Below are positions 10,243-35,842 of a stretch of 39,576 nt of DNA, piece by piece (the first letter of the stretch is position 1; each line of letters begins with the position of its first letter). Both the position numbers and the translations under genes were made by a program. This DNA is from a virus. Under the pieces are notes generated by a model. That model did not search any database. It had not been told where the DNA came from and saw nothing but the letters and a program-made list of their open reading frames with translations. The stretch covers positions 1 to 39,576 of IMG/VR virus record IMGVR_UViG_3300017991_000208. One strand, 5' to 3'.

Positions 10243-11715
10243 TTACAGATCAAGTAAAGGATTTCTAATTGCTTGATTTACACCTACGTTTTTAAATAAT
10301 ACATAACGTAAAGGTGCATACCATTTAGGTACAACATAGAAATTAACTGTACCCCATCTGTAAGGAGCGATCTTTGCATATTCTACCTTATGAATAGGAG
10401 CCAATTGTGAAAGAGACATAGTTCTAAGTTCTCCAGCAACTGTATTATCAAGTAATACAGACTGTGAAGTACCGGGAATCTCTTCATTCTTATCTTGATA
10501 TGATGCGGCTGCTGCCGTTACCGTTGTCAGATATCTAAAAACACCTGACGCGGGAGATGTTTCACCATAAATTTCATAAGCTGTAGGTGCATAAGGTCCG
10601 CCACCAGATGTTATAGTAATTGTCAAAGCTCCACCAGCTGCAACTGTTTTTACAGTTGTTGCTGCACAAGCTGCTGATTTACCATATTGATTGATGGCTG
10701 AGACTCTATATTGATAATCGCCTGCAATTCTTCCACCACTACCAGAAGCTGCCCATAATGAACCCACAACTGTAGGAGCATTTATTGCTACTGAAGCTGA
10801 AGGTGTTGCGGGAGCTTTTGTTGATGTTGCACCTTCTATTAAAGTAGAAGGAGTTGATGGATCTTTAATTTTAGGAACGCCTTGAGCTTCAACACTTAAG
10901 AAAATATCAGGCTTTAAATTGAAGTTCCCAAAAGCTGTCCTCATCTGTGTCACCGCGTGTCCAAGAGCAAGCAACCCGCTTGTTGCAGAAACTGCTTCTA
11001 CATTAATACGAGCATTGTTTGCTGTTGTACTCAATAACTGATCTATAGAAGTCTGTACAGCAAGTGAATTATACATGTCAGTTGGAACACCAAAATTAGC
11101 TGCAATTATTTCTGCTCCATCTCTCATGTTTGCTTCTGTAATTGTTGAACCTCTAAGATCTATAACGTGATCAGTCGAACCGTTATTCTTAATTGTCTTA
11201 ATAATACCATCAAATGACTGAGGTACCATCGTACTATCACCATAGAATAAATTCTTTTCAGTTGTTCTAAGAGCTCTCATCATAGCTGCCTGTACTGAAA
11301 GAACTTCTGCATTAGAAATTGTTTTGACATACGGTAATACATCAGAAACTTTCCAAAGCGTTCTCACATACTTAATGACAGCGTAAGCTCTTCGAAAATC
11401 AGGATCTCCTTCTTCTGGGTTTTCCATCTGACTTACAAAACCGCCTTCTGTTCCATATCCGTCCTGAACTGAATATTCTTCAAGAGTACTATAAGCTTTT
11501 GTTATACCTATATCCTTAAAGAGTTTTAAATGCTTTTCCTGAAATGTAAGCATTGCTAACGTACTTTCAAGAGATTGCATCTGGAGAGCTCCACCTTGAT
11601 TAAGTGCAGCGATATCAGTCACGCCTTCCTGAGCTTGAAGGGCTTTAACTAAATCATTAACTTCAGCAAGAGAGGATTCTCCATAGCCTTCAAACATTTG
11701 TTCACGAAAATCCAT
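10243..11715 (-). CDS. Major capsid protein (490 aa) with an inserted Ig/FN3-like domain
   Basis: The N-terminal part (LNQGGALQMQSLESTLAMLT, then KLFKDIGITKAYSTLEEY) and the EGGFVSQMENPEEGDPDFRR / YVRTLWKVSD segments match the HK97-fold capsid proteins of large phages. These usually have an N-terminal arm, a long spine helix (SVQAAMMRALRTTEKNLFYG) and a P-domain. At about residues 300-415 a Gly/Ala/Thr-rich beta segment (RIAGDYQYRVSAINQYGKSA, AYEIYGETSPASGVFRYLTT) looks like an inserted immunoglobulin/FN3-type surface domain. A strong AGGAGG site precedes the ATG. The gene is flanked by scaffold upstream and a terminator downstream, as expected for the most highly made protein. Confidence 0.85.
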   Translation of the reverse strand: MDFREQMFEGYGESSLAEVNDLVKALQAQEGVTDIAALNQGGALQMQSLESTLAMLTFQEKHLKLFKDIGITKAYSTLEEYSVQDGYGTEGGFVSQMENPEEGDPDFRRAYAVIKYVRTLWKVSDVLPYVKTISNAEVLSVQAAMMRALRTTEKNLFYGDSTMVPQSFDGIIKTIKNNGSTDHVIDLRGSTITEANMRDGAEIIAANFGVPTDMYNSLAVQTSIDQLLSTTANNARINVEAVSATSGLLALGHAVTQMRTAFGNFNLKPDIFLSVEAQGVPKIKDPSTPSTLIEGATSTKAPATPSASVAINAPTVVGSLWAASGSGGRIAGDYQYRVSAINQYGKSAACAATTVKTVAAGGALTITITSGGGPYAPTAYEIYGETSPASGVFRYLTTVTAAAASYQDKNEEIPGTSQSVLLDNTVAGELRTMSLSQLAPIHKVEYAKIAPYRWGTVNFYVVPKWYAPLRYVLFKNVGVNQAIRNPLLDL

Positions 11716-11716
11716 A

Positions 11717-12460
11717 TTAATTCACCTCCTGTTTTGATATATTACTTTTAATCAAATTAAGAGTATCGGGCTGAAGTGATTTCAGATCATACCCAGATAA
11801 CTCATATTTAGTAATCTCGGCAGAATCTACTGAACCTTCCTGAACTGCTTTCATGAGTATTCCTTTAACAGCCTTTTTTGAAGGCATATTAATTGAATCT
11901 TCATTAAATCCAGATTTTTCTAATACATCTTCTTTTGTTATTTTACCTTTTACTCTGTTTGGAGTATTACTGATCCCTTCTACTTCTTCTGAAATTGATT
12001 TAATCAATTCAGTTGAAGATTCAAAAGTTTCAGCAATACTTTTTTGAAGATCGTTTGCTTCTTCCTGTGATTTTTTTAAATCACTAATCTCTTCTTTCAA
12101 ACCTCCAATCTCGTCGATTGCAGTTGAAAGAACATCAATAAATGATTTAAGAACAGGAACAGCATCAATAACTTCTTCATTATCGGCAATCGTTTCTTTT
12201 AAAGATTTTTCAACTTTAGAACTTTCTTCTTCTTCTTCCTCATCTTCGTCTTCTTCGTCATATTCTTTCATATAATTCTTGATTTTCTTTCTCATTTTTT
12301 CACTTTTTAAAAGCTCTTTGATCTCGCTATGAGATTTAGATTTAATAAGATCTCCCATCTTTTCAAGATTTTCATCAAGAGTCTTTTTTAAATCTTTTTC
12401 TTCAGAAGACTGATCTTCCTGAGGAGCGGTTGTGGAATCAATTTTTTCCTTATCGCCCAT
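11717..12460 (-). CDS. Head scaffolding protein candidate (247 aa)
   Basis: The protein is very acidic with long helices: a run of D/E around residues 65-80 (YDEEDEDEEEEEESSKVEKS), a long coiled-coil stretch (VLSTAIDEIGGLKEEISDLK, and the following KSQEEANDLQKSIAETFES) and a helical end. It has no enzyme motif. Capsid scaffolds are typically acidic and coiled-coil, sit between protease and capsid genes, and are removed by the protease during maturation. The gene overlaps nothing but is one base from the capsid gene's start region, consistent with co-translation. Call based on composition and order. Confidence 0.7.
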   Translation of the reverse strand: MGDKEKIDSTTAPQEDQSSEEKDLKKTLDENLEKMGDLIKSKSHSEIKELLKSEKMRKKIKNYMKEYDEEDEDEEEEEESSKVEKSLKETIADNEEVIDAVPVLKSFIDVLSTAIDEIGGLKEEISDLKKSQEEANDLQKSIAETFESSTELIKSISEEVEGISNTPNRVKGKITKEDVLEKSGFNEDSINMPSKKAVKGILMKAVQEGSVDSAEITKYELSGYDLKSLQPDTLNLIKSNISKQEVN

Positions 12461-12475
12461 AATATTTACCTCCTC

Positions 12476-13378
12476 TTAAAATGTTAATTTAGCTATTGAA
12501 GCACTATTTGTTGCAATTAGCTTTATAATTTCTTCGGCTTCTTCTTTATTGAAGCCTTTATCTTCAAAATATTTTTGATAATCTGAATAATTTCCTTTTA
12601 AATTACCTGAGACAAGACTATCCATAATGAATGGAATTGCATTTCTTATTTTTCTATAATCAACGTTTTTCTTTTTCTTATCCCCTTCAATAGATTGCAT
12701 TTGAACAGCTTGTCCACCAGAAAGATTTGCTATATTTGTAACGCTCCCTGCTTCTAAAGCTTTATTTAAAAATTCTACATCAGAAAATGATTTTAAGAAT
12801 TCATCATAAGACGAAAATTGTATTTCATAGTTCTCATCTCCATTAAATGACTTTATTAAACTTACTGAAGTTTCTTGGTGAACAGCTTTCTGCAACGGAG
12901 TGATAGCGATATGTTTGAGACTTATCTTAGAAATTGAATTTATTTTTTTCTTCGTAGCTTTATCTACATCAGAAGATTTTTGTAATATTTTCCCTCCCAA
13001 AGAAGCTCCAAATATTTTACTTCCATTTCTTAATGCAGGCATTATTGCATTGTCTACATAAGGATTCCCTTTAAAAAGAAAACCGTGACATACGGGTACT
13101 CCTCTCTCTGAATCTATAAACAGTTTCTGAGGCTCACCAATTATTGCAGTCGCTCTTTCTACTGGAGTACTTCCTAAAATAGAAATATGATCATAGTCTA
13201 TTACACCATCATAAATGAAAGATTTTATACAATCATCATCAAAAGCTTTTAAAAGTATTTTATCATTTACTCTATCTATTGTAGGCTTGTTTGGAATAAT
13301 TTCGACTGGTATTCTTCCATTTGTTTCTTCTCCAGTCTTTTTAATTAAAGCAGGAAATGAAAATTGATTTAATTCCAT
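12476..13378 (-). CDS. Prohead maturation protease with C-terminal extension (300 aa)
   Basis: I take ATG 13378 (MELNQFSF) because GGAG lies five bases upstream; an earlier ATG at 13387 overlaps that site. Residues ~55-165 carry features expected of the prohead-protease fold: DYDHIS with the likely catalytic histidine, FGASLGGKIL with the likely serine, and LKHIAITPLQKA closing the core. The C-terminal ~100 residues contain VTNIANLSGGQAVQMQSIE, very similar to the N-terminus of the capsid protein, followed by a helical tail. It would cut scaffold and capsid (and perhaps tagged cargo) in the immature head. First gene of its operon, behind a promoter and an in-leader terminator. Confidence 0.75.
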   Translation of the reverse strand: MELNQFSFPALIKKTGEETNGRIPVEIIPNKPTIDRVNDKILLKAFDDDCIKSFIYDGVIDYDHISILGSTPVERATAIIGEPQKLFIDSERGVPVCHGFLFKGNPYVDNAIMPALRNGSKIFGASLGGKILQKSSDVDKATKKKINSISKISLKHIAITPLQKAVHQETSVSLIKSFNGDENYEIQFSSYDEFLKSFSDVEFLNKALEAGSVTNIANLSGGQAVQMQSIEGDKKKKNVDYRKIRNAIPFIMDSLVSGNLKGNYSDYQKYFEDKGFNKEEAEEIIKLIATNSASIAKLTF

Positions 13379-13391
13379 ATTCTCCATAAAT

Positions 13392-13430: not shown

Positions 13431-13485
13431 TGTGTCCTTAAAAATAAGATTGTATACAAAAAAACCTTTGTTACTTAATAAGTAC

Positions 13486-13514: not shown

Positions 13515-13521
13515 CCTATTT

Positions 13522-13546: not shown

Positions 13547-13576
13547 GGTAAGAAATACTGTTAATATTTAATCTTA

Positions 13577-16216: not shown

Positions 16217-16230
16217 AATTTTTCTCCTCT

Positions 16231-16287
16231 TTATTATTATAATACCAAGAAGCAACGAAATAGTTAACCGACTATTTTATTTATTTT
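16231..16287 (-). promoter_or_regulatory. 57-bp repeat containing an extended -10 promoter (copy A)
   Basis: Bases 16231-16287 are identical to 35786-35842. On the minus strand: AAATAGT-CGGTTA-ACTATTT palindrome, -35 TTAACT (16262-16267) inside its right arm, 17-bp spacer, TGG extension and -10 TATTAT (16239-16244). The predicted start near 16232 is right before the AGAGGAG ribosome site. The palindrome overlapping the -35 looks like a repressor site; it could also be the end signal of the gene upstream. Confidence 0.65.
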
Positions 16288-17822: not shown

Positions 17823-18006
17823 TATATATAATCCTCAAACCTATTAATTGATCTTCTTTATAATCAAAAGTTCCATTCGTATCTGACAATAAATGAACTT
17901 TATATATTCTACCCTCTTTAGTTTCTTTTATATTCACAACGTGCCCAATTCTATAATGACCTATAATCCTAACATATTCATTTAATTTTATTTTTGTTTT
18001 TTCCAC
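17809..18006 (-). CDS. Hypothetical SH3-like small protein (65 aa)
   Basis: The product MEKTKIKLNEYVRIIGHYRI then GHVVNIKETKEGRIYKVHLL and GTFDYKEDQLIGLRII is a run of short strands with a GHVVNI turn, as in small SH3-like barrels of phage and ribosomal origin. It overlaps the 1128-residue gene by 19 bases and the 67-residue gene by 14. No function visible; a nucleic-acid-binding role is only a possibility. Confidence 0.55.
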   Translation of the reverse strand: MEKTKIKLNEYVRIIGHYRIGHVVNIKETKEGRIYKVHLLSDTNGTFDYKEDQLIGLRIIYNAKN

Positions 18007-21000
18007 TTTCCTTCCTTAAAACTTTCTTCCATATATGGAAGAATTTTTGTATCATTTTCTAATACAGTTATTTTTATTCCTTTCTTTTCTAAATGACTTT
18101 TTAGAATTTTGATATATTCCTTGTAATCTTTTGCTTGATTCATTTTGTCAGCAAATTTTTTATCAGTATCTTCAAGCTCTGTCATTAATCTTTCAGCTCC
18201 TAAATTTCCAATAATAACTTCAGCAAACATACTCGTAGGCACAAAACTTGGAAGATGCCCCTCATACTTTCCATGAGACTGTCTATTTAAATAATCATTT
18301 ATACTCCCTTGAGCTGCTATATCTTTAGCCATATATTCGTAATATTTAGGATTCTCTTTAGCATTAAGTTTTGATTTATTAAAATGAATATTTCTATCTT
18401 CTTGTCTTGGTTGTATAATTTGTTTTAATTCGACATTAAACATTCTTTCAAAATCTCTAAAGCTCTCTGTATAGATTTTCCCAATATTTTCTTTTTTGCC
18501 AGCACCCAGTTTTCCTTTAGCATTTATATATTTTATTTCTAATTCATCATTACCTTCATCTATCTTAATGATTTTGAATGTATATTTATCTTCTTGAAAT
18601 TCATCTCCAACTTTATATCCTCTTTTTTCTTTTGTCCATTCTCTATGATCATACATTTCCCCACTATAAAAACTAGTCCCAGCTACTGGCGTCATATTAA
18701 AATCTGGATGTTCCATTATCTCAGGCTTTAATATTATACTTATTTCTCCGTATCCACTACCATTTCCGTTTGGACCAAGTATACTAAAGACATGTTTATT
18801 TGTTCCTAACTCTTTATCTACCTCATACCCTATAGCACCCGTCTCTATTTCTTCCCAATTATCGTATAATTTATTTAAGATTTTTGCTAAACGTCCTCCT
18901 TTCTTTACATCATAATTTCCACCAAGAAATTTAACAAGATTTGCTCTTGTTCCAGCTATCTTTCCAACATCATTTATCTCCTTGTATATTTTCTCAGTTA
19001 TTTCATCACCAAATTCTGGTCTTATCTCACTTTCAACTATTGCATATCCAGCTTGCTTTCCACTCTCTCCCAATTGTTCTAACGATTTCAACCCTCCACT
19101 TTTCAATACTCTTATAAACTTTTCTGCTGATAAACTATGTACTGGAGTAAGATTTTTAGCAAAATCTTCTAATACTTCAAGATGACTCATTTCATGAAGT
19201 ATTTGTTTTCTTTCTTTAAGTCTTTCTTCTTTATTTTTTAGTACACGTTTAAGTTCATCACCTTTAATTTTTTTCATTGAATAATCTTCATGCCAATAAG
19301 TTTTATTTTTAATTGCATTTTTTATATCAGCAATTTGTATTTTATAATGGCTATAAAGTTTTTCATGACCTTGATAGATAGAAGAATTCTTATATGAATA
19401 TTCTTTAATTTCATCATTCAAGAACTTCTCATTAGCTTTAAAATCTATTCCTTTATTCAATCCCTTTACTGGAATTTGTTCTAATAAAAATTTTTCTTTT
19501 TTTGTTTCTGATTTCTTTTCTTTTATTTCTCCTACAAATTTCCAGGTCTTATTACCGACCTTTTTAAACTTTCCACCCTTCCAATTTCTCACTGTCCCTA
19601 TAGGAAGAGTTTTAGCTTTAAGAAAGTTATTTTTATCTGATATTCTTAATTGAAATTTAGACTTTTTTAATTTTTTTTTATTGATTCTTTTAAATACTTC
19701 TATTTCATTTTTATTTAAATAAAGATATGCTATATATCTATGTAATCCATCCATTATTTTATTATTTTCATCTACAACAATTGGATGTAATTTTATACCA
19801 TTTTTTATTTTATCAACTAACGAATGAATTATACCAAGAGATTCTTCTGCATCAGGATCATCAATATAATCGTTATAAGTTAAATTACTTTCTATGTCGT
19901 TTATATTTACTTTTTCTTTTATAAATTTATCATTTTTTTCTGAATCAAATATAATATTCGCAGATTTAACACCTTCAGACATAATATTTTCTACTTCTTT
20001 TAGTGTAAATTGTTTCTTATTTTCATCTTTTAAATCTTCTATTTCATCTTTTACATAATCTACAATTTCTTTTTTTGTTTTAAATCTTTTACTCCATTCA
20101 TGATCATTTCCTTCTTTCTTATTAGTAACATATAAATCCCATGTATTTTTCTCGTCTGTTCTTTCTATATGAAAAGTTGTATCTTTAAATTTTACTTCAT
20201 ATTCTCCAAAATCTATTTTTTTTATTTTAATGCTTTCTTTTTCGTTTGTTGTTAATTTTCCTGTCTTTGGATCTTTGTACCAGTATTTGTAATTTCCCTT
20301 AACCCCAGTTCTTTTAACATATTTATGATTTCTAGATTTAAAAAATAAAGATTTCTTTAATTTTTTTTTATATATCCCCTTTATATATTGTGCTGGAATT
20401 TTACTGAAATTATATTCTGATGGATCGTCAATATCATATCCTTTTGATTCTTTAAAATCAAAATTTTCAGCATCATTTAATGGAATCTTTATATATAAAA
20501 TCGTATCTGGCCCATAAGACTCTGCGAATTCAAAATTATCTGTCAAACTAATATCTTCTTGTCCTACACTCCCAGATATTATTCCAGTTTCAGACGATGG
20601 TAATAACCCTTCTTTTAATATTTTATCTTTATTTTTCTTTGATGTTCCATGAAAAGCTCCAATATATTTTACTCCATTTTCTTCAAACATTCCTGATCTT
20701 GGTAAATTATAATAATTAAATTCTTTAAGTTTCTTTTCTATTTTTTGCTCTTCTTTTACAGGTACCCACTTACCTTCGGCTACTTTTTTCAATCCAGTCT
20801 TCTGGCTTATGTAACCTATTGGATACTTTTTAGCTTTAAAAAAATATAAGCCTGTTGATTTCTGTAATTTCTCTTTATTTAAAATATCTTCTATTATAAG
20901 ATATCCTTCAGGACAATAATTTTTTAATACTGTTTCATAAGCTTCATCGATTATTTTTCCTGAAATATACCATTTAAATAATGTAGCTAATATCTCTTTC

Positions 21001-21374
21001 TCTTCTGAATATACATGATCATTAATAAATATTCTACCATCACCATTATTTTTTTGAAGCTTCTTCTTAAGATCTTTTAGTTTTATTTTTGTTAAAGATC
21101 TTAAATCATCATATCTACAAATCTGATGTGCAAATTCATGAATGAAATCTCCTCTCCAATCAGAAGTAGATTCATAAATGATTATTATGCCTTCATCATA
21201 TTCAGCTCTAATATCATTTTTTTTATTAATGTCTTTATATAAATGAATAATTATAGGATTTTTTAATTTTATATATTGTTCAAGCTTCTCCACGACATCT
21301 CTCAGTTCACCATCGAGTGCCTGGTAGCGTTCATTTGACCAGCCCATATTATCTATATACAATTTTACATTCAT
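17988..21374 (-). CDS. Giant polyvalent protein: metallopeptidase, ART-like, ParB-like modules and cargo tags (1128 aa)
   Basis: Residues ~1-165: zinc metallopeptidase-like domain with HEFAH (79-83) and a downstream glutamate (YSEEKEILATLF). 180-205: tag with FFKAKKYPIGYISQKTGLKK. 236-335: ADP-ribosyltransferase-like segment (AFHGTSKKNKDKILKEGLLP, ISLTDN, TILYIKIP), where HGT and SLT recall the H-Y-E type. 345-375: KYVKRTGVKGNYKYWYKDPK tag. 465-560: ParB/sulfiredoxin-like N-domain (LHPIVVDENNKIMDGLHRYI). 585-615: second PIGTV tag. 720-910: helical region with HEMSH and a YGEISIILKPEIM block like polyvalent-protein modules. It follows the MuF gene. I infer a capsid-packaged, injected effector. 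No signal peptide or membrane helix is seen. Confidence 0.65.
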   Translation of the reverse strand: MNVKLYIDNMGWSNERYQALDGELRDVVEKLEQYIKLKNPIIIHLYKDINKKNDIRAEYDEGIIIIYESTSDWRGDFIHEFAHQICRYDDLRSLTKIKLKDLKKKLQKNNGDGRIFINDHVYSEEKEILATLFKWYISGKIIDEAYETVLKNYCPEGYLIIEDILNKEKLQKSTGLYFFKAKKYPIGYISQKTGLKKVAEGKWVPVKEEQKIEKKLKEFNYYNLPRSGMFEENGVKYIGAFHGTSKKNKDKILKEGLLPSSETGIISGSVGQEDISLTDNFEFAESYGPDTILYIKIPLNDAENFDFKESKGYDIDDPSEYNFSKIPAQYIKGIYKKKLKKSLFFKSRNHKYVKRTGVKGNYKYWYKDPKTGKLTTNEKESIKIKKIDFGEYEVKFKDTTFHIERTDEKNTWDLYVTNKKEGNDHEWSKRFKTKKEIVDYVKDEIEDLKDENKKQFTLKEVENIMSEGVKSANIIFDSEKNDKFIKEKVNINDIESNLTYNDYIDDPDAEESLGIIHSLVDKIKNGIKLHPIVVDENNKIMDGLHRYIAYLYLNKNEIEVFKRINKKKLKKSKFQLRISDKNNFLKAKTLPIGTVRNWKGGKFKKVGNKTWKFVGEIKEKKSETKKEKFLLEQIPVKGLNKGIDFKANEKFLNDEIKEYSYKNSSIYQGHEKLYSHYKIQIADIKNAIKNKTYWHEDYSMKKIKGDELKRVLKNKEERLKERKQILHEMSHLEVLEDFAKNLTPVHSLSAEKFIRVLKSGGLKSLEQLGESGKQAGYAIVESEIRPEFGDEITEKIYKEINDVGKIAGTRANLVKFLGGNYDVKKGGRLAKILNKLYDNWEEIETGAIGYEVDKELGTNKHVFSILGPNGNGSGYGEISIILKPEIMEHPDFNMTPVAGTSFYSGEMYDHREWTKEKRGYKVGDEFQEDKYTFKIIKIDEGNDELEIKYINAKGKLGAGKKENIGKIYTESFRDFERMFNVELKQIIQPRQEDRNIHFNKSKLNAKENPKYYEYMAKDIAAQGSINDYLNRQSHGKYEGHLPSFVPTSMFAEVIIGNLGAERLMTELEDTDKKFADKMNQAKDYKEYIKILKSHLEKKGIKITVLENDTKILPYMEESFKEGKWKKQK

Positions 21375-21376
21375 TA

Positions 21377-21835
21377 TTATTTTAAATTTTCTCTTGCTTT
21401 ATCTAACTCTTTCTTTAAAGTCTTAAAGCTGTTATCAGTTATTTCAAAATAATCTTTTATTTCTTCATTTGTTATATCAGAAAGTTTTCCTTCTTTTACA
21501 CCAATTCCATCAACATCAAATTTAAATGTACCGTCTTTCTTTATTATAAAATTACCAGAATTGCCGTGTCCACTTACATTATTTAATTTACCCTCAAAAC
21601 CATTATATTTTTCTTTTTTTTGTACTGGCAATGGATCTTCAGTTTTCTTTTCTTTTTTATATGGAGAAGTTTTAAATCCTTCCTTCAATTTATGTGTCTT
21701 AGGATCCATGTACCAATATTTGTAGTCGCCCGGGACTCCAGTCCGTTTGATATACTTTGCCTTCATAAGATTTCCACTGTCATAAATTGCGTTTGATTTA
21801 AAAAATTCTTCATCATTTAAAAATGGTTGTTTTAT
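21377..21835 (-). CDS. Tagged cargo-like protein with probable AUA start (152 aa)
   Basis: The first ATG is at 21766 (MKAKYIKRTGVPGDYKYWYM), but the frame stays open upstream and encodes IKQPFLNDEEFFKSNAIYDS, clearly the same N-terminal module as the proteins starting at 25769 (MNKQPFLNDDNFF) and 25419 (MIQPFLNDSDFFK). At the equivalent point stands ATA (21833-21835) with AGGAG seven bases upstream. I therefore take an AUA start; if wrong, the protein begins at 21766 with 129 residues. The tag KYIKRTGVPGDYKYWYMDPK follows, then a beta/turn-rich C-terminal part (GHGNSGNFIIKKDGTFKFDV) of unknown function. It lies between MuF and the giant protein. Confidence 0.6.
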   Translation of the reverse strand: MKQPFLNDEEFFKSNAIYDSGNLMKAKYIKRTGVPGDYKYWYMDPKTHKLKEGFKTSPYKKEKKTEDPLPVQKKEKYNGFEGKLNNVSGHGNSGNFIIKKDGTFKFDVDGIGVKEGKLSDITNEEIKDYFEITDNSFKTLKKELDKARENLK

Positions 21836-21849
21836 TGTTTTTCTCCTAT

Positions 21850-23142
21850 TTAAATTTTATATACCACCTTATTAATTGAACTGTCCCATTCCTCTACTGT
21901 AGGATCAATTTCGGACCAATAGTGAATACATTGCGGATGGGCAGGAATACATATCCACCAATTGGCTCCATTTCTCCCCACATTATTTTTACCGCGCCAT
22001 ATAGCATATCGAGCGTGTGGGTCGTTTATTTCATCATCGCTTAATGGCTTATCTACATACTTTACTATTGTCCCTAACCAATTAATACATTGTTTTGATG
22101 ATGTTGGTATTATACCCCCTGAAAAAACAAAATACGTACTTTTGCCTTCTTTCTTTTTCTGTTGATTTACAGCTTCTAAGTATCCGTTATTTAATGCGTA
22201 TGAAATTTCTGTTATACTCACTCTCCTCCAATCTCTGTTTATTGCGTCAATTGTTTTTTGTGAAAATCTTCTTCCAAGTTCATCTGTAGGATCTATCCAG
22301 AATAATCTTTGTGTTAATTCTTGAGCTGTCAACCCATCCTCTAACCCGCCCGTTATTTGTTCTCTAACTAATTTAACTATTTTGTTTTTTAGACTTCCGT
22401 CTTCTATTGCAAGATGTTCTGCAGCGTGTTGTTTTGAATATTCAATTGCTGCAATTTCTGGGTCAGACAGGTTAAATTTCTTTACTGCATCTTCTGTATT
22501 ATCAGGAATATAACCATACCTTGATTCAACATCGTCATGCGACATTTTCTTTTGTTCGTCAATTGGAATCCCATCTTCTTCCATTACTTGCATTAGTTTT
22601 CCCATTAAACCTGCTTTTACAACAAGCTCTTCTTCTAATGTCCCTATTTTATCTCCTAGAAAATCTACAATTTCTTTTGTCAAATTATTCCATTCTTCTG
22701 TCGTTAATGGCATTCCTGTTTCTGGGTTATATTTTAGTTTTCCTTTTATATTTAATGGTTGTAATGGCTTTCCTTTATTGAACCCAAATTTCTTAAAGAA
22801 GTTCTTTGCTATAGTGAATTTCTCTTTTAAATTAGAAAAAAGAGATTTATAAAACAAAGCATTTTCGATCTCTTCACCATTAGCAGCTTTTTGAAGAATA
22901 TCTAATGAAACTTTAACAGATTTTTGCATTATATTAGAAGGATCTACATTCAACTTTAATCCAACACCAATTGCTATTTGTTTGAATACATCCTGAACAT
23001 ATTCCATCAATGCTTCTTGATATTCTCTTACCCATCTGAAATCACTTAATTCTGCTTTAGTTATTTCTTTATCGGCTTTAATTAAAAGTGATTGTATTTC
23101 CCATTCTTTATTTTGTAAATGATTTGGTATAAATAATTTCAT
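21850..23142 (-). CDS. MuF-type minor head / head morphogenesis protein (430 aa)
   Basis: The C-terminal domain has the MuF pattern: WRRVSITEISYALNNGYLEA, then VFSGGIIPTSSKQCINWLG, and the terminal HPQCIHYWSEIDP motif where MuF/SPP1 gp7 proteins have HP.C.H. The N-terminal ~150 residues carry a helical, charged region and a lysine-rich patch (KEKFTIAKNFFKKFGFNKGK). MuF proteins are minor capsid components carried in the head and thought to enter the host with DNA; in many phages they are fused to effectors. Here the effector-like modules are encoded separately by the adjacent genes. It directly follows the portal-cargo set, as in other phages. Confidence 0.75.
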   Translation of the reverse strand: MKLFIPNHLQNKEWEIQSLLIKADKEITKAELSDFRWVREYQEALMEYVQDVFKQIAIGVGLKLNVDPSNIMQKSVKVSLDILQKAANGEEIENALFYKSLFSNLKEKFTIAKNFFKKFGFNKGKPLQPLNIKGKLKYNPETGMPLTTEEWNNLTKEIVDFLGDKIGTLEEELVVKAGLMGKLMQVMEEDGIPIDEQKKMSHDDVESRYGYIPDNTEDAVKKFNLSDPEIAAIEYSKQHAAEHLAIEDGSLKNKIVKLVREQITGGLEDGLTAQELTQRLFWIDPTDELGRRFSQKTIDAINRDWRRVSITEISYALNNGYLEAVNQQKKKEGKSTYFVFSGGIIPTSSKQCINWLGTIVKYVDKPLSDDEINDPHARYAIWRGKNNVGRNGANWWICIPAHPQCIHYWSEIDPTVEEWDSSINKVVYKI

Positions 23143-24584
23143 TATTCACTTCGACCATGTCTTTGTTCTTTTTTAATAACTTCTTCTTGTTTATAATTAT
23201 ATAAAAAATCTTTTACTTTATCTTTATCAAATTCTTTAGATAATTCTTTTTTCAGATATTTATCAATCGTATCTTGATCTGCTTCATGAGGTTCTAATCC
23301 ACTAAACAAAACAAATTCATCAACTATATTCTTTTCGTCTTGTTTTGATAATTTCTTTTTACTTTCAAATAAAATTTTCTGTTTTTCTTTTATTTGTTGT
23401 ATTGCTTCTCTTTGTTGTTTCTGAAAATTAGCTATTGATTTTTTACTTGCTTCTGGCCAAATTTTTGCAGCATTAACAACATTGCTTTCCATCTCTTTTA
23501 TTTCTTTATCATAAGCATCCATTTCTTGTTTTGTTTTATTTTCTTCTTTTAACCCGTTATTTAAATCTTTAATCTCCACTTTATTTATAATACTACCATC
23601 TTCCCATTTTACTTTCAATGTTCCATCATTATTGTTTTTAATAACTACTCCCTTATCGATTAATCCCGGCTCAAAACTTATTTCAACAGAATCTCCTTTT
23701 TTATAATCTTTTGTTTTTTTCTTTAAATTTACTTCTTTTGATTTTATTGAATTTATAAATTCTTTTTTATTCATTCTAACCGGTTCACTGTCTTTATCAG
23801 TTATAAACTGAACAAATTTATCACCTTTTTTCGTAATTTTTATTTTATCATTCTTACGTATTATTACTGATTTTCCACTTCTAGTTACTACATTAATATC
23901 TTTTTTTAACGGTATAAAATCTTTCTTCTTAACTTTTAATTTGCCATCTTTTATGTCAGCACTAATAGTTTCTTTCTCTACTTGTTTTCCTATTTTCTCT
24001 TTCTTAATCGGTATCCACAAACCTTCTTTAACTTTCTTTCTACCCTTACTTACTGTGCCTATAGGCATCTTCTTTCCTTTGATTAATATTAAACTTCCAT
24101 CATTTTTATTTGCTAATAGAACTCCCATTCTATCACCTCCTAACGATTTAATCATGCTTCCTTTCCATTTATCTGAAAATATTTTTTCTTTAAACTCATC
24201 CATTCCCATTTCTGTCATGCTACCAAAAAACCCCGGTCTATCGTATTGATTCATATACGCTTTCTTCGCTTCATCTGCTGAATTAAAACCCACCATGACT
24301 TTATCTTCGTCGTACTGTCTCGAAACTGGATCGTTCTGATGTACGATGTAAACAACGTCACTGTTTTTATTATTCCCGATATACGCATCCAAATGCTGTT
24401 TATCTTTTCCAATGGTTCCTTTTATATATCCATAAGGATAATGCATTTTAGTTTTCCATTCGCGACCATCTTTATCTGTTCCAGATCGAACAGAGCCTTT
24501 TTTGTTCTCTATAGAAATATCTAGACCATTTATCTTTGTTCTTCCTTGAAGTTTATATCCTGAAAATGTTAATGATTTTTTCAT
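23142..24584 (-). CDS. Polyvalent protein with pyrophosphatase-like (InPase) domain and cargo tag (480 aa)
   Basis: Residues ~45-135 read GYIKGTIGKDKQHLDAYIGN, then VVYIVHQNDP, YDEDKVMVGFNSADEAKKAY and GSMTEMGMDEFKEKI. This is the InPase (inorganic-pyrophosphatase-like) domain found in phage polyvalent proteins, with the usual acidic residues preserved. It is followed at about 170-195 by LIKGKKMPIGTVSKGRKKVK and then EGLWIPIKKEK, the cargo tag. The rest has KOW/Tudor-like strands (GVVIKNNNDGTLKVKWEDGS) and a helical tail. It abuts MuF (stop/start share base 23142), supporting packaging with the head. Enzymatic activity is not proven. Confidence 0.7.
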   Translation of the reverse strand: MKKSLTFSGYKLQGRTKINGLDISIENKKGSVRSGTDKDGREWKTKMHYPYGYIKGTIGKDKQHLDAYIGNNKNSDVVYIVHQNDPVSRQYDEDKVMVGFNSADEAKKAYMNQYDRPGFFGSMTEMGMDEFKEKIFSDKWKGSMIKSLGGDRMGVLLANKNDGSLILIKGKKMPIGTVSKGRKKVKEGLWIPIKKEKIGKQVEKETISADIKDGKLKVKKKDFIPLKKDINVVTRSGKSVIIRKNDKIKITKKGDKFVQFITDKDSEPVRMNKKEFINSIKSKEVNLKKKTKDYKKGDSVEISFEPGLIDKGVVIKNNNDGTLKVKWEDGSIINKVEIKDLNNGLKEENKTKQEMDAYDKEIKEMESNVVNAAKIWPEASKKSIANFQKQQREAIQQIKEKQKILFESKKKLSKQDEKNIVDEFVLFSGLEPHEADQDTIDKYLKKELSKEFDKDKVKDFLYNYKQEEVIKKEQRHGRSE

Positions 24585-24924: not shown

Positions 24925-25419
24925 TTATTTTATTTTTCTATAAATAAATTGATATATGTCGTTGCTTTCAAAACCATCTTCTACTAAATCAGCGAATATA
25001 CCATTAACAGCTTTACTAAATTTATCATAATCATTTTCATTCACTAATCCTCTCATTCTATCATATCTACCGCCCGTAGGAGTTCTCATTGCTGTACTAA
25101 CAAGAAATCTTAAAATGTCTACTCGTTCAAATCCTTCTTTATCTAAATCCTTTAATATAGCATTTGAAGATTCTTTAAGATCTTTTAAATCTTTTATTTT
25201 TGAAAGACCTTCCATTCTCTGTTCAGGTTTTAATATCTCACCATTTACTTTAGAATCTTTTTTTTCGTTCTTTACTGGTACCCACTTACCTTCGGCAACT
25301 TTTTTGTAACCTTTAGATACTGTACCTATTGGCATCTTTTTAGATTTCATTAAGTTGCCACCCTCGTCAATCCCCACTGATTTGAAAAAATCACTATCAT
25401 TTAAAAATGGCTGTATCAT
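24925..25419 (-). CDS. Tagged cargo-like protein (164 aa)
   Basis: N-terminal module MIQPFLNDSDFFKSVGIDEG then GNLMKSKKMPIGTVSKGYKK and VAEGKWVPVKNEKK shows both the KQPFLND-type and PIGTV-type tags fused directly. The remaining ~110 residues (residues 55-164) are helical, with FERVDILRFLVSTAMRTPTG and DYDKFSKAVNGIFADLVEDG; I recognise no family. A strong GGAGG site precedes the ATG, which overlaps the previous gene. Role proposed: capsid cargo of unknown activity. Confidence 0.65.
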   Translation of the reverse strand: MIQPFLNDSDFFKSVGIDEGGNLMKSKKMPIGTVSKGYKKVAEGKWVPVKNEKKDSKVNGEILKPEQRMEGLSKIKDLKDLKESSNAILKDLDKEGFERVDILRFLVSTAMRTPTGGRYDRMRGLVNENDYDKFSKAVNGIFADLVEDGFESNDIYQFIYRKIK

Positions 25420-25769
25420 TTTTTTCCTCCATACTCTCTAATGTATTTCATAAAACCTGACTTCTCTTCTTTTCTAATTTCTTTAAGTGCATCATTAAGT
25501 TTCATTTCGTTCTTTAAAACTTTATGTGCTAATTTATGTGCTTCATCAGATATTTCGAATTCTTTTTCTTCTTCAACGGCTTCTTTTGATCCTAACTTCT
25601 CCATCTTTTCTCTATTACCTCCCGGGCCTGTTCCATCTTGTGGACCGCCTTGTGCTCCGATAGGATTTCCACCACATCTTCCTTTTTTACTTTTAATTAA
25701 ATTGCCACCTTCATCCATTTCAGTATTTTTAAAAAAATTGTCATCGTTTAAAAATGGTTGTTTATTCAT
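25416..25769 (-). CDS. Tagged small protein with Gly-rich linker (117 aa)
   Basis: Starts MNKQPFLNDDNFFKNTEMDE then GGNLIKSKKGRCGGNPIGAQ and a Gly/Pro-rich run (GGPQDGTGPGGNREK), followed by an acidic helix and a basic tail (DAHKLAHKVLKNEMKLNDAL-like). This carries the KQPFLND..FF module of its neighbours and a degenerate NPIGAQ version of the PIGTV tag. No catalytic motif. It is co-translated with its neighbours (overlaps by 4 and 8 bases). Probably cargo, or an assembly protein that interacts with the tag's receptor. Confidence 0.6.
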   Translation of the reverse strand: MNKQPFLNDDNFFKNTEMDEGGNLIKSKKGRCGGNPIGAQGGPQDGTGPGGNREKMEKLGSKEAVEEEKEFEISDEAHKLAHKVLKNEMKLNDALKEIRKEEKSGFMKYIREYGGKK

Positions 25770-25983
25770 GCTCTCCCTCCATAATTGCTAATTTATCATA
25801 ATAATCATTAAGCTCTTTTAAATGAACTAATGCTATTTTTTTTGCAAATTCATTTTTATCTATAGGCATTTTTATTCCTTTTGTCTTTAAATACTTTTCA
25901 AAGTAATTATACAAATCATCATGTTCTCTTTCAACTTTTATACCCGTATTCAATTGAGATTGAGATTTAAAAATCAATTTCAT
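25762..25983 (-). CDS. DUF5661-like small protein (73 aa)
   Basis: After a short N-terminus (MKLIFKSQSQLNTG) the protein reads IKVEREHDDLYNYFEKYLKT, then KNEFAKKIALVHLKELNDYY and DKLAIMEGEHE. That is the DUF5661 pattern: V-E-x-E-H near the start and I-A-x-x-H-L-x-E-x-x-x-Y-Y-x-x-L..E near the end. The family is common in phage and MuF-like contexts but has no known activity. The paired E/H and H/E residues could bind a metal. Located between sigma factor and tagged cargo genes. Confidence 0.6.
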   Translation of the reverse strand: MKLIFKSQSQLNTGIKVEREHDDLYNYFEKYLKTKGIKMPIDKNEFAKKIALVHLKELNDYYDKLAIMEGEHE

Positions 25984-25984: not shown

Positions 25985-26740
25985 TTAAAACTCCTTTAAA
26001 AACTGAATAAATTCTTGCCATATTTTAGATTTAGCGAGAAATTCTTTTGCAATCGGTTTTATATGTTTATTGACTAATTTTGTTATATTCGCTTTTGATG
26101 TCTTTGTTAATCTTGAAATAGAAGCTTTATTATAACCTTGCAACATGTAATCTAAAATCTGTTTTGCTTCTTTGCTTTTTATTCTTTCTTTCATCAATTC
26201 TATATTTCTCTTAAATTCAACTTCTTCTATATCTTTCTTTTGTCTTGGATCTTCTACAATCTCTTCTATTCCTTTAGAAGTCTCTTCTTCTTTAGAAGAA
26301 AATGAAGATATATACGCATCTCTATCTAATCCTTTCATTTCTTTTGCTATTCCTTTGAATATATATCCTGTCATATAGCTTCTTACATAAGATAAAAAAG
26401 CTTTTGAAGATTTTTTTACATTAAATTTATCTATAGCTTTTATAAAGCCTATATTTGCATTTTGAACTGAGTCATCTACATTTTTTATTTTTGACATTAT
26501 TCTATTAATAACATCCCTAACGAATACTTGATTTTGTGTTATAAATTCATTCCTTAATTCTATATCTTCTTTAAGTTTTTTTATATCTTTAGAAGAAATA
26601 ACATCAAGTCTTAATTTGTTTTCTTTTTTACTTATAGATACCCACTTTCCTTTACTTATTTTTTTCAATCCAGTCTTTTGACTTATATGCCCTATAGGAT
26701 ATTCTTTTGATTTCTCTAATTTCAATATCAATTTTTTCAT
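25985..26740 (-). CDS. Sigma-70-like factor with cargo tag (251 aa)
   Basis: Residues ~68-132 are a sigma region 2: NQVFVRDVINRIMSKI, then VDDSVQNANIGFIKAIDKFN with the D(D)xxQ..xxGxxxAxxKF core, and FLSYVRSYMTGYIFKGIAKE. Residues ~178-232 (RNIELMKERIKSKEAKQILD, YNKASISRLTKTSKANITKL) fit a region 4-type helix-turn-helix. Before them, residues 10-40 carry the cargo tag (KSKEYPIGHISQKTGLKKIS, KGKWVSI) seen in neighbouring polyvalent proteins. So this looks like a sigma factor carrying a virion tag, encoded next to the portal. It might be packaged and injected to redirect host RNA polymerase. Fold assignment is good, packaging is inference. Confidence 0.7.
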   Translation of the reverse strand: MKKLILKLEKSKEYPIGHISQKTGLKKISKGKWVSISKKENKLRLDVISSKDIKKLKEDIELRNEFITQNQVFVRDVINRIMSKIKNVDDSVQNANIGFIKAIDKFNVKKSSKAFLSYVRSYMTGYIFKGIAKEMKGLDRDAYISSFSSKEEETSKGIEEIVEDPRQKKDIEEVEFKRNIELMKERIKSKEAKQILDYMLQGYNKASISRLTKTSKANITKLVNKHIKPIAKEFLAKSKIWQEFIQFLKEF

Positions 26741-28383
26741 GGTAAGATCTCTATATAATCTTGTTTTGATTTTTCAAATTTAAATTCTTCTTTGGGTTGT
26801 TCTTTTTCTTTAGGTGTTTCTTCTATATCTTCTTCAGGTTCTTCACCAAATTCATTTCCAACACTCATCCCTCCTTGCATCTCACTCATCTGTTTCATTT
26901 GTTGTGCTTGTAGAAAGTTTGGATTATTAATTATATCTCCACCGTCTATAGGCTTAAGATCTTTTTCTTTTCTCTTTTCATTTATTGTCATATATACTTG
27001 TGTTTGTTTCTCATCTACATTAAGTTCTGCTAATTGATCTTTAGCTTCTATTCCAGTGAATTCCATTCTATAAGGATCCCATTCTGGTACTCTTTCAATT
27101 ATCTTATTAAGAATACTTTGAACGAAAGCTAATATATCTTTTAACCCTCGATCTCTACTATAAGTTATTTCATTTTGTCTATTTTCATATAATGTAGCTT
27201 GTGTTCTATTAAATCTTAAACCTAATTCTGCTGGGTCTATTCCGTGAATCGCACATATCCATGAAGCTAATGTCTGTGTATATTCATTGAACTCCATATC
27301 TCTATTCGGAGGAGCTATTGGTATCCATTTTGCGTTGTGCTGCAAAAATGGAGTTCTCCACATTCCTTTTACGCCTCGAAACATTGATATCCATTGTCTT
27401 TGAAGTTCTTCTAAATCACCTTGTTCAATTTTCTCTCCTTCGAAAGAAATTACTCCTTTAGGCTGTGAAGACGAATTAAATATCTCTTTATTATATGCCA
27501 TTGCAAATAGCCAAGCAGTTATCATATCGAGAGACATTTCAATGTAAGAATATCCATATCCTCTTTGCCTTATGTCTGTTCTTCTATTCATAAAATAAAA
27601 TATTAGATCATCTTTTGTGAATGTCTCTACAAACCTTCCATTTACTTCTTGTACGAATGCAATACTTTTGTCTCCCTGAAAACCCTTGTCTTTCATCGTC
27701 CTTTTAATCGTAGCAGCATCTAATATCCAATAATCTAATATTTTATTTTTTTTATTTCTTCTAAGACTTATAGCTACTTGATCAATAGTCATCATTTCTC
27801 TTGTAATCAATTCAACAACATCTGATAAACCTTCTTCTCTTTCATCTGCACCCTCGAAGTTAGTATATCCAGAATATAATAAAAACTCTTCAATCTCTTT
27901 CATTATTTTTTCATCTTTCTTAGAAGGCGTTCCTTTTTTATCTTTCAATTTAACCCTAAACCCAACATCGTCATCATTATAACTTGTTTCAGAAAAAGGT
28001 CTTATCTGCATACATCTTACATTTTGTATTGTACTTATTGGAGCTGTTCTTTGAGCTATTTGTCTAAGTATTCTAAACGATAAATGAAAGAATTTTTCTC
28101 TTACTCCATGAATGCCGTATCCCCATTCTGCCATCCATTCTGCTGGCTCTATCATTCCTTTTGGAGCATTTATCGCGCCATTCCCTTTTCTATTTTGTTT
28201 ATAAAATAATAAATCATTTTGATAACTTTTTAAAAAATCAATCTGTTGAAGTCCTGCATTCTCTATAGCTTTTAATTTTGCTAATTCGTGAATTGTCTGA
28301 GGCTGTGAATCAGAAGAAATATCGTTTTTAATATTGAAAGCTTCTTTAAACTTTCTTTCGCCTAATGAAGATAAAGACAACAT
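26737..28383 (-). CDS. Portal protein (548 aa)
   Basis: The size and order (first structural gene after the terminase module) fit a portal. The sequence has a long alpha/beta core with GYSYIEMSLDMITAWLFAMA, EYTQTLASWICAIHGIDPAE and LYENRQNEITYSRDRGLKDI, typical of HK97/SPP1-like portals where the wing, stem and clip alternate; LGLRFNRTQA is a characteristic loop. The C-terminal ~60 residues are disordered and acidic (GEEPEEDIEETPKEKEQPKE). It forms the dodecameric ring through which DNA is packed and ejected. Strong GGAGG site; the leader contains a promoter and a terminator. Confidence 0.85.
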   Translation of the reverse strand: MLSLSSLGERKFKEAFNIKNDISSDSQPQTIHELAKLKAIENAGLQQIDFLKSYQNDLLFYKQNRKGNGAINAPKGMIEPAEWMAEWGYGIHGVREKFFHLSFRILRQIAQRTAPISTIQNVRCMQIRPFSETSYNDDDVGFRVKLKDKKGTPSKKDEKIMKEIEEFLLYSGYTNFEGADEREEGLSDVVELITREMMTIDQVAISLRRNKKNKILDYWILDAATIKRTMKDKGFQGDKSIAFVQEVNGRFVETFTKDDLIFYFMNRRTDIRQRGYGYSYIEMSLDMITAWLFAMAYNKEIFNSSSQPKGVISFEGEKIEQGDLEELQRQWISMFRGVKGMWRTPFLQHNAKWIPIAPPNRDMEFNEYTQTLASWICAIHGIDPAELGLRFNRTQATLYENRQNEITYSRDRGLKDILAFVQSILNKIIERVPEWDPYRMEFTGIEAKDQLAELNVDEKQTQVYMTINEKRKEKDLKPIDGGDIINNPNFLQAQQMKQMSEMQGGMSVGNEFGEEPEEDIEETPKEKEQPKEEFKFEKSKQDYIEILP

Positions 28384-28404
28384 TTAAAACCTCCATAAAT
28401 AAAT

Positions 28405-28443
28405 AAAAAAAAAGCCACGCACCGAGATCAAGGTGCGCAGCTT
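28405..28443 (-). terminator. Strong intrinsic terminator in the leader of the portal operon
   Basis: A 12-bp stem (AAGCTGCGCACC with GGTGCGTGGCTT, two G-U wobbles that pair only on the minus-strand RNA) and an eight-base loop are followed by nine T on the minus strand, then ATTTATTTATGGAGG and the portal ATG. It lies about 75 bases downstream of the promoter at 28524-28552, as in the protease operon, so read-through must be controlled. Confidence 0.85.
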
Positions 28444-28523
28444 ATAATCAATTGTATAATGGGATGAAAAGTATATCTAGCATTATCCTTAATAAGATTT
28501 TGCTTTTTTAACATTACATTTAT

Positions 28524-28552
28524 ATTATATATCTTTTAAGTTACAATGTAAA
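28524..28552 (-). promoter_or_regulatory. Sigma-70 consensus promoter for the portal operon
   Basis: Minus strand: -35 TTTACA (28547-28552), 17-bp spacer, -10 TATAAT (28524-28529), predicted start near 28517. It is in the only non-coding stretch between the secreted-protein gene and the portal. It shares its layout and an upstream palindrome with the promoter at 13486-13514. Confidence 0.75.
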
Positions 28553-28559
28553 CAAGAAA

Positions 28560-28582
28560 TTTCAATATTATTGAAACTTTTT
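28560..28582 (-). promoter_or_regulatory. Palindromic element upstream of the 28.5-kb promoter
   Basis: Minus strand AAAAAAG, TTTCAA, five bases, TTGAAA, ending seven bp before the -35, the same sequence and spacing as at 13522-13546 (one base different in the loop). It starts shortly after the stop of the secreted-protein gene. Shared operator, activator or UP element; a weak transcript end is an alternative. Confidence 0.55.
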
Positions 28583-28587
28583 TATAT

Positions 28588-32121: not shown

Positions 32122-32175
32122 ACTCCACCTCCATTATTTAGACTTCAGTAACTCTGTCTTATTCATGGCTTCTCC
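32122..32175 (-). repeat. Inter-gene linker repeat, copy 2
   Basis: Nearly identical to 31867-31921 (the central few bases differ). Contains the mini-ORF MNKTELLKSK, the TAAATAATGG stretch and the AGGTGGAGT ribosome site of the 70-residue gene. Confidence 0.75.
32134..32166 (-). other. Ten-codon mini-ORF
   Basis: MNKTELLKSK then stop. Its LLKSK end and following bases match the end of the 137-residue gene at 32645-33058, so the mini-ORF looks like an internal-deletion remnant that keeps the first and last codons of a gene. Translation is possible (GGAGAAG upstream) but not shown. Confidence 0.4.
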
Positions 32176-32447
32176 TTAATCAATTTAAAGAATCCATAAC
32201 CCCAGCTTGCAGACCATCTCCATCCTTCTTTCTTTCTTTTTGCAATATATTCATTCCACTTTTTTTCGTCTTCCTCATTATCGTATCGAACATAAGGCAT
32301 ATTCCAATCCAATAAAATAGCATCACCGTTATCCCCCTCTATTATAACTTCATCACAACCAAATTCCCTGAACCCCTCTGTCCAAGACTTTCCTACAAAA
32401 TTACCTAATTCTATATTTTTTCCCTTTGGTTTTATCTTTACTTTCAC
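32163..32447 (-). CDS. Hypothetical protein (94 aa)
   Basis: Starts MKVKIKPKGKNIELGNFVGK, with SWTEGFREFGCDEVIIEGDN and a tryptophan-rich end (KKEGWRWSASWGYGFFKLIK). A small beta-rich fold with an acidic centre. Not recognised. Start preceded by the conserved AATGGAGGTGGAGT spacer. Function unknown. Confidence 0.6.
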   Translation of the reverse strand: MKVKIKPKGKNIELGNFVGKSWTEGFREFGCDEVIIEGDNGDAILLDWNMPYVRYDNEEDEKKWNEYIAKRKKEGWRWSASWGYGFFKLIKEKP

Positions 32448-32475
32448 ACTCCACCTCCATTATCCTCTTTCTTTT

Positions 32476-32631
32476 TTATTTACTGCTTATCCACATATTT
32501 AAAAATCCAATTAATAAAACCCATATAGAGCCTGATAACTTAAAATTTGATTCCTGAATTATCCCAATTGTATACATTACCATACTAACAACAATACAAA
32601 TCATTCCGATTACCATATTTAATGCCCTCAT
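32476..32631 (-). CDS. Two-pass small membrane protein (51 aa)
   Basis: MRALNMVIGMICIVVSMVMY then TIGIIQESNFKLSGSIWVLL and IGFLNMWISSK: two hydrophobic helices joined by a short polar loop. ATG 32631 has GGAGGTGG in the conserved linker just upstream. Small membrane peptides of this kind may act in lysis, host-membrane effects or exclusion; nothing specific can be said. Confidence 0.6.
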   Translation of the reverse strand: MRALNMVIGMICIVVSMVMYTIGIIQESNFKLSGSIWVLLIGFLNMWISSK

Positions 32632-32634
32632 ACA

Positions 32635-32662
32635 TCCACCTCCATTATTTAGACTTCAGTAA
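32635..32662 (-). repeat. Inter-gene linker repeat, partial copy 3
   Basis: The TTACTGAAGTCTAAATAATG stretch followed by GAGGTGGA at the end of the 137-residue gene repeats the corresponding part of the linker copies at 31867 and 32122. It lacks the GAGAAGCCATGA part. Confidence 0.65.
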
Positions 32663-35617: not shown

Positions 35618-35770
35618 TTATTTATTTTTTTCTTTTTCTTTTAAAATTTCATTTACTATATCATTAGTCATATCTTTTTGAGGCAATGGCATTGTAAGAT
35701 CACCAAAATCTTTATCAACATCCCATTGATTTAAAAGAATACCATCATCTGATATTAATGTTAATTTCAT
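35618..35770 (-). CDS. Small protein (50 aa), first gene after a 57-bp repeat
   Basis: MKLTLISDDGILLNQWDVDK then DFGDLTMPLPQKDMTNDIVN and a charged helix. ATG 35770 has AAGGAG upstream. It is the first gene after copy B of the 57-bp promoter repeat, just as the 300-residue gene follows copy A. No motif; function unknown. Confidence 0.65.
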   Translation of the reverse strand: MKLTLISDDGILLNQWDVDKDFGDLTMPLPQKDMTNDIVNEILKEKEKNK

Positions 35771-35785
35771 AATATTTTCTCCTTT

Positions 35786-35842
35786 TTATTATTATAATAC
35801 CAAGAAGCAACGAAATAGTTAACCGACTATTTTATTTATTTT
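35786..35842 (-). promoter_or_regulatory. 57-bp repeat containing an extended -10 promoter (copy B)
   Basis: Perfectly identical to 16231-16287. Minus strand: palindrome AAATAGT-CGGTTA-ACTATTT, -35 TTAACT (35817-35822), 17-bp spacer, TGG extension and -10 TATTAT (35794-35799). It stands between the terminase stop and the ATG of a 50-residue gene. Two promoters with one sequence point to co-regulated accessory operons. Confidence 0.65.

What the first reader, a model, noticed from the sequence alone, without database searches (positions are those of the whole stretch)
25985..26740. Sigma factor carrying a virion-cargo tag, encoded next to the portal
Seen: a sigma region 2 signature (VDDSVQNANIGFIKAIDKFN) and a region 4-like helix-turn-helix in a protein whose residues 10-40 carry the same PIG.ISQKTGLKK.S.GKWVS tag as the giant polyvalent protein. 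Known: phage sigma factors are normally made after infection; some phages inject RNA polymerases or regulators with the DNA. Inference: this sigma factor may be packaged and act at once in the new host.
Basis: partly seen in the sequence, partly recalled or inferred. Interest (0 to 1): 0.75.

Follow-up and report, generated by a model that had tools for sequence, protein, structure and literature searches.

The report
Sigma factor carrying phage-cargo tag
This virus gene encodes a genuine bacterial-type sigma factor (the part of RNA polymerase that picks which genes are read) fused to a short tag found on proteins that the virus probably loads into its particle, so the virus may bring its own gene-selection switch into the cell rather than making it after entry; the packaging is inferred, not shown.

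Summary
ORF 25985-26740 (-), 251 aa, is a sigma-70-family factor: TIGR02937 55.3 bits (cut-off 42.9) over residues 62-232, i.e. regions 2 and 4; Foldseek hits are sigma factors. Its N-terminal tag matches a profile built only from 30 non-sigma tags at E=8e-14. In the window and the loci searched with that profile, the tag occurs only on genes of the portal-MuF block, among them InPase, SNF2-helicase and zeta-toxin proteins; elsewhere it sits on NUDIX, ADP-ribosyltransferase, DdrB-ParB and topoisomerase proteins. Many of these are classic polyvalent (injected) domains.

New here: two further phages, L041 and L008, encode an orthologous sigma (45% and 42% identity) in the same portal-adjacent block. 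L041's tag is intact; L008's holds an in-frame TGA. IMG/VR scans gave no fourth member. Hydrophobic-hydrophobic-K-[S/A] sites, resembling K|S prohead-protease sites, are enriched in scaffold, protease and cargo, and many precede the tags.

Best reading: a virion-cargo sigma, made late with the portal, packaged, injected, then loading host core RNA polymerase. Sigma identity and tag are shown; packaging and immediate action are inferred. The early region is missing and the host unknown, so target promoters could not be tested. New variant of a known kind.

The parts
25985..26740 (-). tagged sigma-70-family factor, 251 aa
   Evidence: TIGR02937 5.9e-15 over cut-off; PHROG351 sigma 9.1e-10; Sigma70_r2 over cut-off; AlphaFold/Foldseek
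26633..26713 (-). tag, residues 10-36 (EKSKEYPIGHISQKTGLKKISKGKWVS), predicted beta-hairpin
   Evidence: profile of 30 non-sigma tags, E=7.9e-14; strands 25-29 and 32-35 in the model
26339..26557 (-). sigma region 2 (residues about 62-134)
26036..26179 (-). sigma region 4 helix-turn-helix (residues about 188-235)
   Evidence: TIGR02937 coverage to profile position 163/165; helices 190-200, 205-212, 216-235 at pLDDT 83-89
26737..28383 (-). portal protein, overlaps the sigma start codon by 4 nt
   Evidence: PF04860 1.5e-18
25762..25983 (-). 73-aa DUF5661 protein; fused behind a tag in L004's 1211-aa SNF2 protein
   Evidence: PF18905 6.3e-9; same domain in L004
25416..25769 (-). 117-aa protein with the QPFLNDxxFFK leader
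   Evidence: sequence
24925..25419 (-). 164-aa cargo candidate: leader plus tag
   Evidence: tag E=6.4e-19
23142..24584 (-). InPase polyvalent-type protein with tag
   Evidence: PF18823 3.4e-44; tag E=1.6e-14
21850..23142 (-). MuF-like head morphogenesis protein
   Evidence: PHROG head morphogenesis, weak; L041 orthologue matches Phage_Mu_F at 6.5e-4, below cut-off
21377..21766 (-). 129-aa protein, second tag type; leader upstream in frame with an ATA codon in start position
17988..21374 (-). 1128-aa giant polyvalent-like protein with two tag copies
   Evidence: tag iE 1.9e-16 and 2.5e-5
12476..13387 (-). probable prohead protease; its C-terminal part resembles the capsid protein's N-terminus
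   Evidence: genome position and sequence; PHROG3698 unknown function
11717..12460 (-). probable scaffold, 6 hhK[SA] sites against 0.3 expected
10243..11715 (-). major capsid protein
   Evidence: PHROG752 1.6e-84
28384..28587 (-). promoter-like site, leader and terminator-like hairpin ahead of the portal-sigma operon

Best explanation
The gene makes a compact two-domain (regions 2 and 4, ECF-like in layout) sigma factor with an N-terminal head-cargo tag. It is translated from the late portal operon together with a set of tagged polyvalent-type proteins. Those proteins are drawn into the prohead, probably through the tag/leader region, and partly trimmed by the capsid maturation protease at hydrophobic-hydrophobic-K|[S/A] sites. 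They are packaged with the DNA and injected. In the new cell the sigma binds host core RNA polymerase and directs it to phage promoters before any phage protein is made. Shown: sigma family membership, the shared tag, gene location and conservation in three phages. Inferred: tag function, cleavage, packaging, injection and early action.
For: Sigma family over the curated cut-off across both domains, with PHROG and PDB profile matches and fold matches. Sigma tag matches a profile built without any sigma. The tag is confined to the portal-MuF-cargo block in the 2605 frames searched. Other tag bearers are polyvalent-type domains: InPase, SNF2, NUDIX, zeta toxin, ART, ddrB-ParB, topoisomerase IB; Iyer et al. 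2017 (PMC5512222) argue InPase polyvalent proteins are packaged. Orthologous sigmas in L041 (intact tag) and L008 lie in the same block, with pN/pS 0.35 between them. hhK[SA] sites: cargo 11 vs 2.7, head proteins 13 vs 1.9, other genes 4 vs 5.4 expected; replicated in cargo of three relatives, 28 vs 6.6. T4 precedent: diverse internal proteins share only a capsid targeting sequence (PMC3012670).
Against: No particle proteomics exists for this phage group and the tag was never tested as a packaging signal. The L008 sigma has an in-frame TGA inside the tag, so by the standard code it makes a sigma with half a tag. The sigma lacks the QPFLNDxDFFKS leader that several cargo proteins have. The cleavage motif was chosen after looking at the sequences, and once tag-adjacent sites are left out the window cargo excess is weak (7 vs 2.7, P=0.02); the 'other' group of the relatives also leans up (5 vs 2.4, P=0.09). 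Phage sigmas are normally made after infection.
Confidence: 0.55

Rival explanations
1. It is an ordinary late sigma factor that sits in the portal operon and keeps late transcription going in the same cell. The tag is a duplicated linker with no role in packaging, or packaging is incidental.
For: Known phage sigmas act after infection (phiEco32-type in PMC9965538; Listeria CKA15 in PMC12282133). A relative, L004, carries two untagged sigmas away from the head genes. L008 has a stop inside the tag. The tag could spread by duplication, since its DNA is similar between genes.
Against: A sigma made only from the late operon would come too late to switch that operon on. The promoter-like site ahead of the operon resembles a host-type TTTACA-17-TATAAT. 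The same tag is otherwise confined to the cargo block.
Confidence: 0.25
2. The protein is packaged but works as a decoy or blocker: it binds core RNA polymerase and shuts off the host sigma rather than initiating at phage promoters.
For: The promoter-melting tryptophans of region 2.3 (WW in sigma-70) read S-Y in all three orthologues (own reading), and the region between domains 2 and 4 is predicted disordered. T4 Alt is a packaged protein that modifies host RNA polymerase (PMC5512222).
Against: One aromatic is kept, and region 4 is the best-predicted part of the model; a pure blocker would not need a DNA-binding region 4.
Confidence: 0.12
3. The sigma-like fold has been reused for DNA binding or head assembly and no longer binds RNA polymerase.
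For: L008's region 2 scores below the Pfam cut-off, and its best Pfam match is a KorA-like repressor HTH, also below cut-off.
Against: L008 and L041 still match the PHROG sigma family at 1e-10 and 2.8e-11, L041 matches TIGR02937 at 2.8e-17, and the core-binding stretch Q[EN]AN.G..KAI.KF is conserved in all three.
Confidence: 0.08

Closest known systems
Phage sigma factors (SPO1 gp28, phiEco32 gp36, Twort-like Sig)
   Same: sigma-70 family, would redirect host RNA polymerase
   Different: those are encoded outside the head genes, untagged, and act on middle or late genes after synthesis (PMC9965538, PMC12282133); Sig was seen in fRuSau02 particles, but its authors judged it co-purification (PMC5618024)
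Virion-packaged RNA polymerases (N4 vRNAP, phiKZ/SPN3US vRNAP)
   Same: the idea: transcription machinery enters with the DNA
   Different: those are whole polymerases; here only a specificity factor that would use the host core
T4 internal proteins and Alt with a capsid targeting sequence
   Same: diverse cargo sharing a short N-terminal element, some of it aimed at host RNA polymerase, and trimming by the head protease
   Different: the tag sequence is unrelated, its function is untested, and the T4 set named in the sources read here holds no sigma
Polyvalent proteins (Iyer et al. 2017)
   Same: same co-tagged domains: InPase, ART, ddrB-ParB, helicases, encoded beside portal and MuF
   Different: the term 'sigma factor' does not occur in that paper; here the sigma is a separate small tagged protein
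Leptospira phage LE1 head module
   Same: similar portal, capsid and DarB-like gene order, and a second tag type at the start of gp15
   Different: no sigma region 2 match in the whole record

Membership tests
sigma-70 family | region 2 match above a curated cut-off | tested here: met
   PF04542 25.8 bits vs 24; TIGR02937 55.3 vs 42.9. Relatives by Pfam alone are below cut-off, but L041 passes TIGR02937
sigma-70 family | region 4 helix-turn-helix after region 2 | tested here: met
   TIGR02937 spans profile 2-163 of 165; three helices at pLDDT 83-89
sigma-70 family | sigma fold by structure | tested here: met
   top PDB and viral matches are sigma factors, probability 0.9-1.0. Whole-chain E-values are only 1e-3 to 6e-5 and TM-scores low (about 0.2-0.3) because domain placement is uncertain
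sigma-70 family | binding to core RNA polymerase and promoter-specific initiation | not testable with these tools
   needs in vitro work
tagged cargo set of this phage group | tag present | tested here: met
   E=7.9e-14
tagged cargo set of this phage group | gene lies in the portal-MuF block | tested here: met
   window and L041; the L008 contig ends before MuF
tagged cargo set of this phage group | presence in particles | not testable with these tools
   no isolate, no proteomics
polyvalent proteins | several effector domains in one chain | tested here: not met
   a single sigma unit plus tag; it resembles the solo, unfused cargo instead

The most novel reading that the evidence does not exclude
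A phage lineage carries a dedicated sigma factor inside its head and injects it, so that host RNA polymerase is re-aimed before any phage gene is expressed; a short modular tag, shared with restriction-evasion and host-modifying enzymes, is the loading signal.
Probability: 0.5. Interest if true: 0.82.

Novelty: new variant of a known kind. Interest (0 to 1): 0.66.

Why it matters
Virion delivery of whole RNA polymerases and of polymerase-modifying enzymes is known, but delivery of a promoter-choice factor is not reported in the papers read here. If true, early transcription of such a phage need not depend on host-type promoters, and the tag would give a simple way to list virion cargo directly from sequence across a whole phage group, and perhaps to load chosen proteins into heads.

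Tried and rejected
Chance resemblance of the tag was rejected. A degenerate sigma look-alike was rejected. Genetic code 25 for L008 was considered because its in-frame TGA falls where Gly stands in most tags of this form; it was rejected as a genome-wide code because portal and terminase have no in-frame TGA, so the stop is a mutation or an assembly error. Sigma-only scans of IMG/VR found no fourth tagged member; the other hits (L048-L050) are untagged sigmas or unrelated neighbours. A portal scan of genome contigs gave no relative, and the tag pattern there gave 4 hits, of which three held no tagged ORF under a looser motif test and one (L047) only a poor match, so the host stays unknown. The tag has no match in the annotated phage collection by tblastn (the query is K-rich and low-complexity masking may hide hits). 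A shared promoter of the phage sigma could not be tested: the early region is not in the window. Rfam and tRNA scans were empty.

Full report
What is there. The window is an IMG/VR virus record of 39,576 bases, 29% GC, a fragment of a tailed phage whose major genes all run on the minus strand. Portal, capsid and terminase are distantly related to SPO1-like Herelleviridae; portal and capsid also to Leptospira phage LE1. The finding's ORF, 25985-26740 (-), starts inside the last codons of the portal gene (ATGA overlap) and encodes 251 aa.

It is a sigma factor. NCBIfam's sigma-70 superfamily model TIGR02937 matches at 55.3 bits against a cut-off of 42.9, over residues 62-232 and profile positions 2-163 of 165, so regions 2 and 4 are both covered. 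Pfam Sigma70_r2 passes its cut-off and PHROG351 'RNA polymerase sigma factor' matches at 9.1e-10. A profile of the three orthologues matches solved sigma factors at 4e-6. AlphaFold models of the window protein and of the L041 orthologue (mean pLDDT about 70, three-sequence alignments) give sigma factors as the top Foldseek hits in PDB and BFVD. These fold matches are moderate by E-value because domain placement is uncertain, so the sequence match is the stronger evidence. The layout, region 2, a disordered linker and region 4 with no recognisable region 3, resembles ECF sigmas.

The tag is real and modular. I built a profile from 30 tags taken only from non-sigma proteins. Against 2605 frames of at least 30 aa from the window and nine other loci (portal relatives, two tagged relatives and LE1), it found the window sigma tag at E=7.9e-14 and the L041 sigma tag at 8.6e-17. 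All hits were in genes of the portal-MuF-cargo block, none in terminase, tail or other genes. Tag bearers include InPase; SNF2 helicases, NUDIX and zeta toxin; ADP-ribosyltransferases, DdrB-ParB and topoisomerase IB. Several of these are the domains that Iyer et al. (PMC5512222) describe for polyvalent proteins carried in virions or transferred with DNA. In the models the tag is a beta-hairpin.

The tagged sigma is conserved. A tag-pattern scan and follow-up found L008 and L041. L041 (12.5 kb) shows the whole block: portal, two tagged proteins, tagged sigma, tagged 176 aa, leader protein, membrane protein, MuF, then more tagged proteins, including relatives of the pieces that are fused in the window's 1128-aa protein. 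L008 shows terminase, portal, two tagged proteins and tagged sigma. The sigmas are 45% and 42% identical to the window's, with pN/pS 0.35 between L041 and L008. In L008 an in-frame TGA splits the tag, although a ribosome-binding site stands in front of the full-length start. Two further scans aimed at sigma itself found no fourth member, so the family is small in current data. The relative L004 lacks a tagged sigma: directly behind its portal lies a tagged SNF2 protein, and it has two untagged sigmas elsewhere.

A clue to packaging. Many tags are preceded by [hydrophobic][hydrophobic]K[S/A], and several cargo proteins begin with a shared leader, (K/N)QPFLNDxDFFKS...LMK[S/A]KK. The motif is 13 observed against 1.9 expected in head proteins (scaffold, protease, portal, MuF, capsid), 11 against 2.7 in cargo, and 4 against 5.4 in the other genes of the window. 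In cargo of three relatives it is 28 against 6.6. In LE1 it is also raised in protease (3 vs 0.26) and scaffold (2 vs 0.25), and a site sits near the capsid N-terminus in LE1 (NFMKSF) and the window (DLVKAL). HK97-type proteases cut at K|S (my own knowledge, not tested here). I read these as maturation-protease sites, which would place the cargo, sigma included, inside proheads. Caveats: the motif was chosen after seeing the sequences, cargo sites not next to a tag are only weakly enriched (7 vs 2.7, P=0.02), and the sigma itself lacks the leader. The precedent is T4, whose internal proteins share only a capsid targeting sequence (PMC3012670), and SPN3US, where the head protease trims many head proteins (PMC10052503).

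How it most likely works. Late in infection the sigma is made with the portal, enters the prohead through its tag region and leaves with the DNA. In the next cell it takes host core RNA polymerase to phage promoters. The first part rests on location and tag, the second on family membership; neither is shown. The promoter-like site before the portal operon is host-type, so the operon need not depend on this sigma, which fits a role elsewhere. The main rival is a late sigma whose tag is only a linker.

Comparison with the literature. In the papers found, phage sigmas act on middle and late genes after synthesis (PMC9965538, PMC12282133). Sigma factors appear in two particle preparations (PMC5618024, PMC4281155); the authors of the first regard theirs as co-isolated with host RNA polymerase, and the second was a single peptide among other non-structural proteins. 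I found no report of a dedicated packaged sigma. The held library omits most subscription papers, so absence there is weak evidence.

Noticed in passing
window 13388-13576 and 28384-28587 (-); L008 1940-2146: Both head operons share AAAAAAGTTTCAA-N-ATATTGAAA (near-palindrome), a TTTAC[A/T]-17-TATA[A/T]T promoter-like site, a leader of about 100 nt and an intrinsic-terminator-like hairpin just before the start codon. L008 shows a similar layout, with the palindrome only half kept. This suggests antitermination or attenuation control.
   Followed up: partly
window 21767-21849 (-): The leader peptide KQPFLNDEEFFKSNAIYDSGNLMKAK continues in frame upstream of ORF 21377-21766 with an ATA codon in start position behind a GGAG site.
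   Followed up: no
window about 16211-16255 and 35760-35800 (-): A repeat of about 40 bp, AAATAAATAAAATAGTCGGTTAACTATTTCGTTGCTTCTTGG, lies upstream of two separate genes and contains an inverted repeat.
   Followed up: no
window 17988-21766; L018 13136-19051; L036, L037, L040: A second tag type, K.KYIKRTG..GDYKYWYMDPKT-like, occurs on the 1128-aa and 129-aa proteins and at the start of LE1 gp15.
   Followed up: partly
L008 5341-5343: In-frame TGA in the middle of the sigma tag, at the place where Gly stands in most tags of this form, followed at once by ATG; mutation or assembly error not resolved.
   Followed up: partly
window 12476-13387 and 10243-11715: The C-terminal part of the probable protease (KALEAGSVTNIANLSGGQAVQMQSIE) resembles the capsid protein N-terminus (KALQAQEGVTDIAALNQGGALQMQSLE).
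   Followed up: partly
window 13577-14134: Pyrimidine dimer DNA glycosylase (Pyr_excise 5.7e-22) encoded just upstream of the protease-scaffold-capsid operon.
   Followed up: no
window 32448-32644 (-): Noncoding, G+C-richer, structured-looking stretch ahead of ORF 32163-32447 or beside it; no Rfam match.
   Followed up: no
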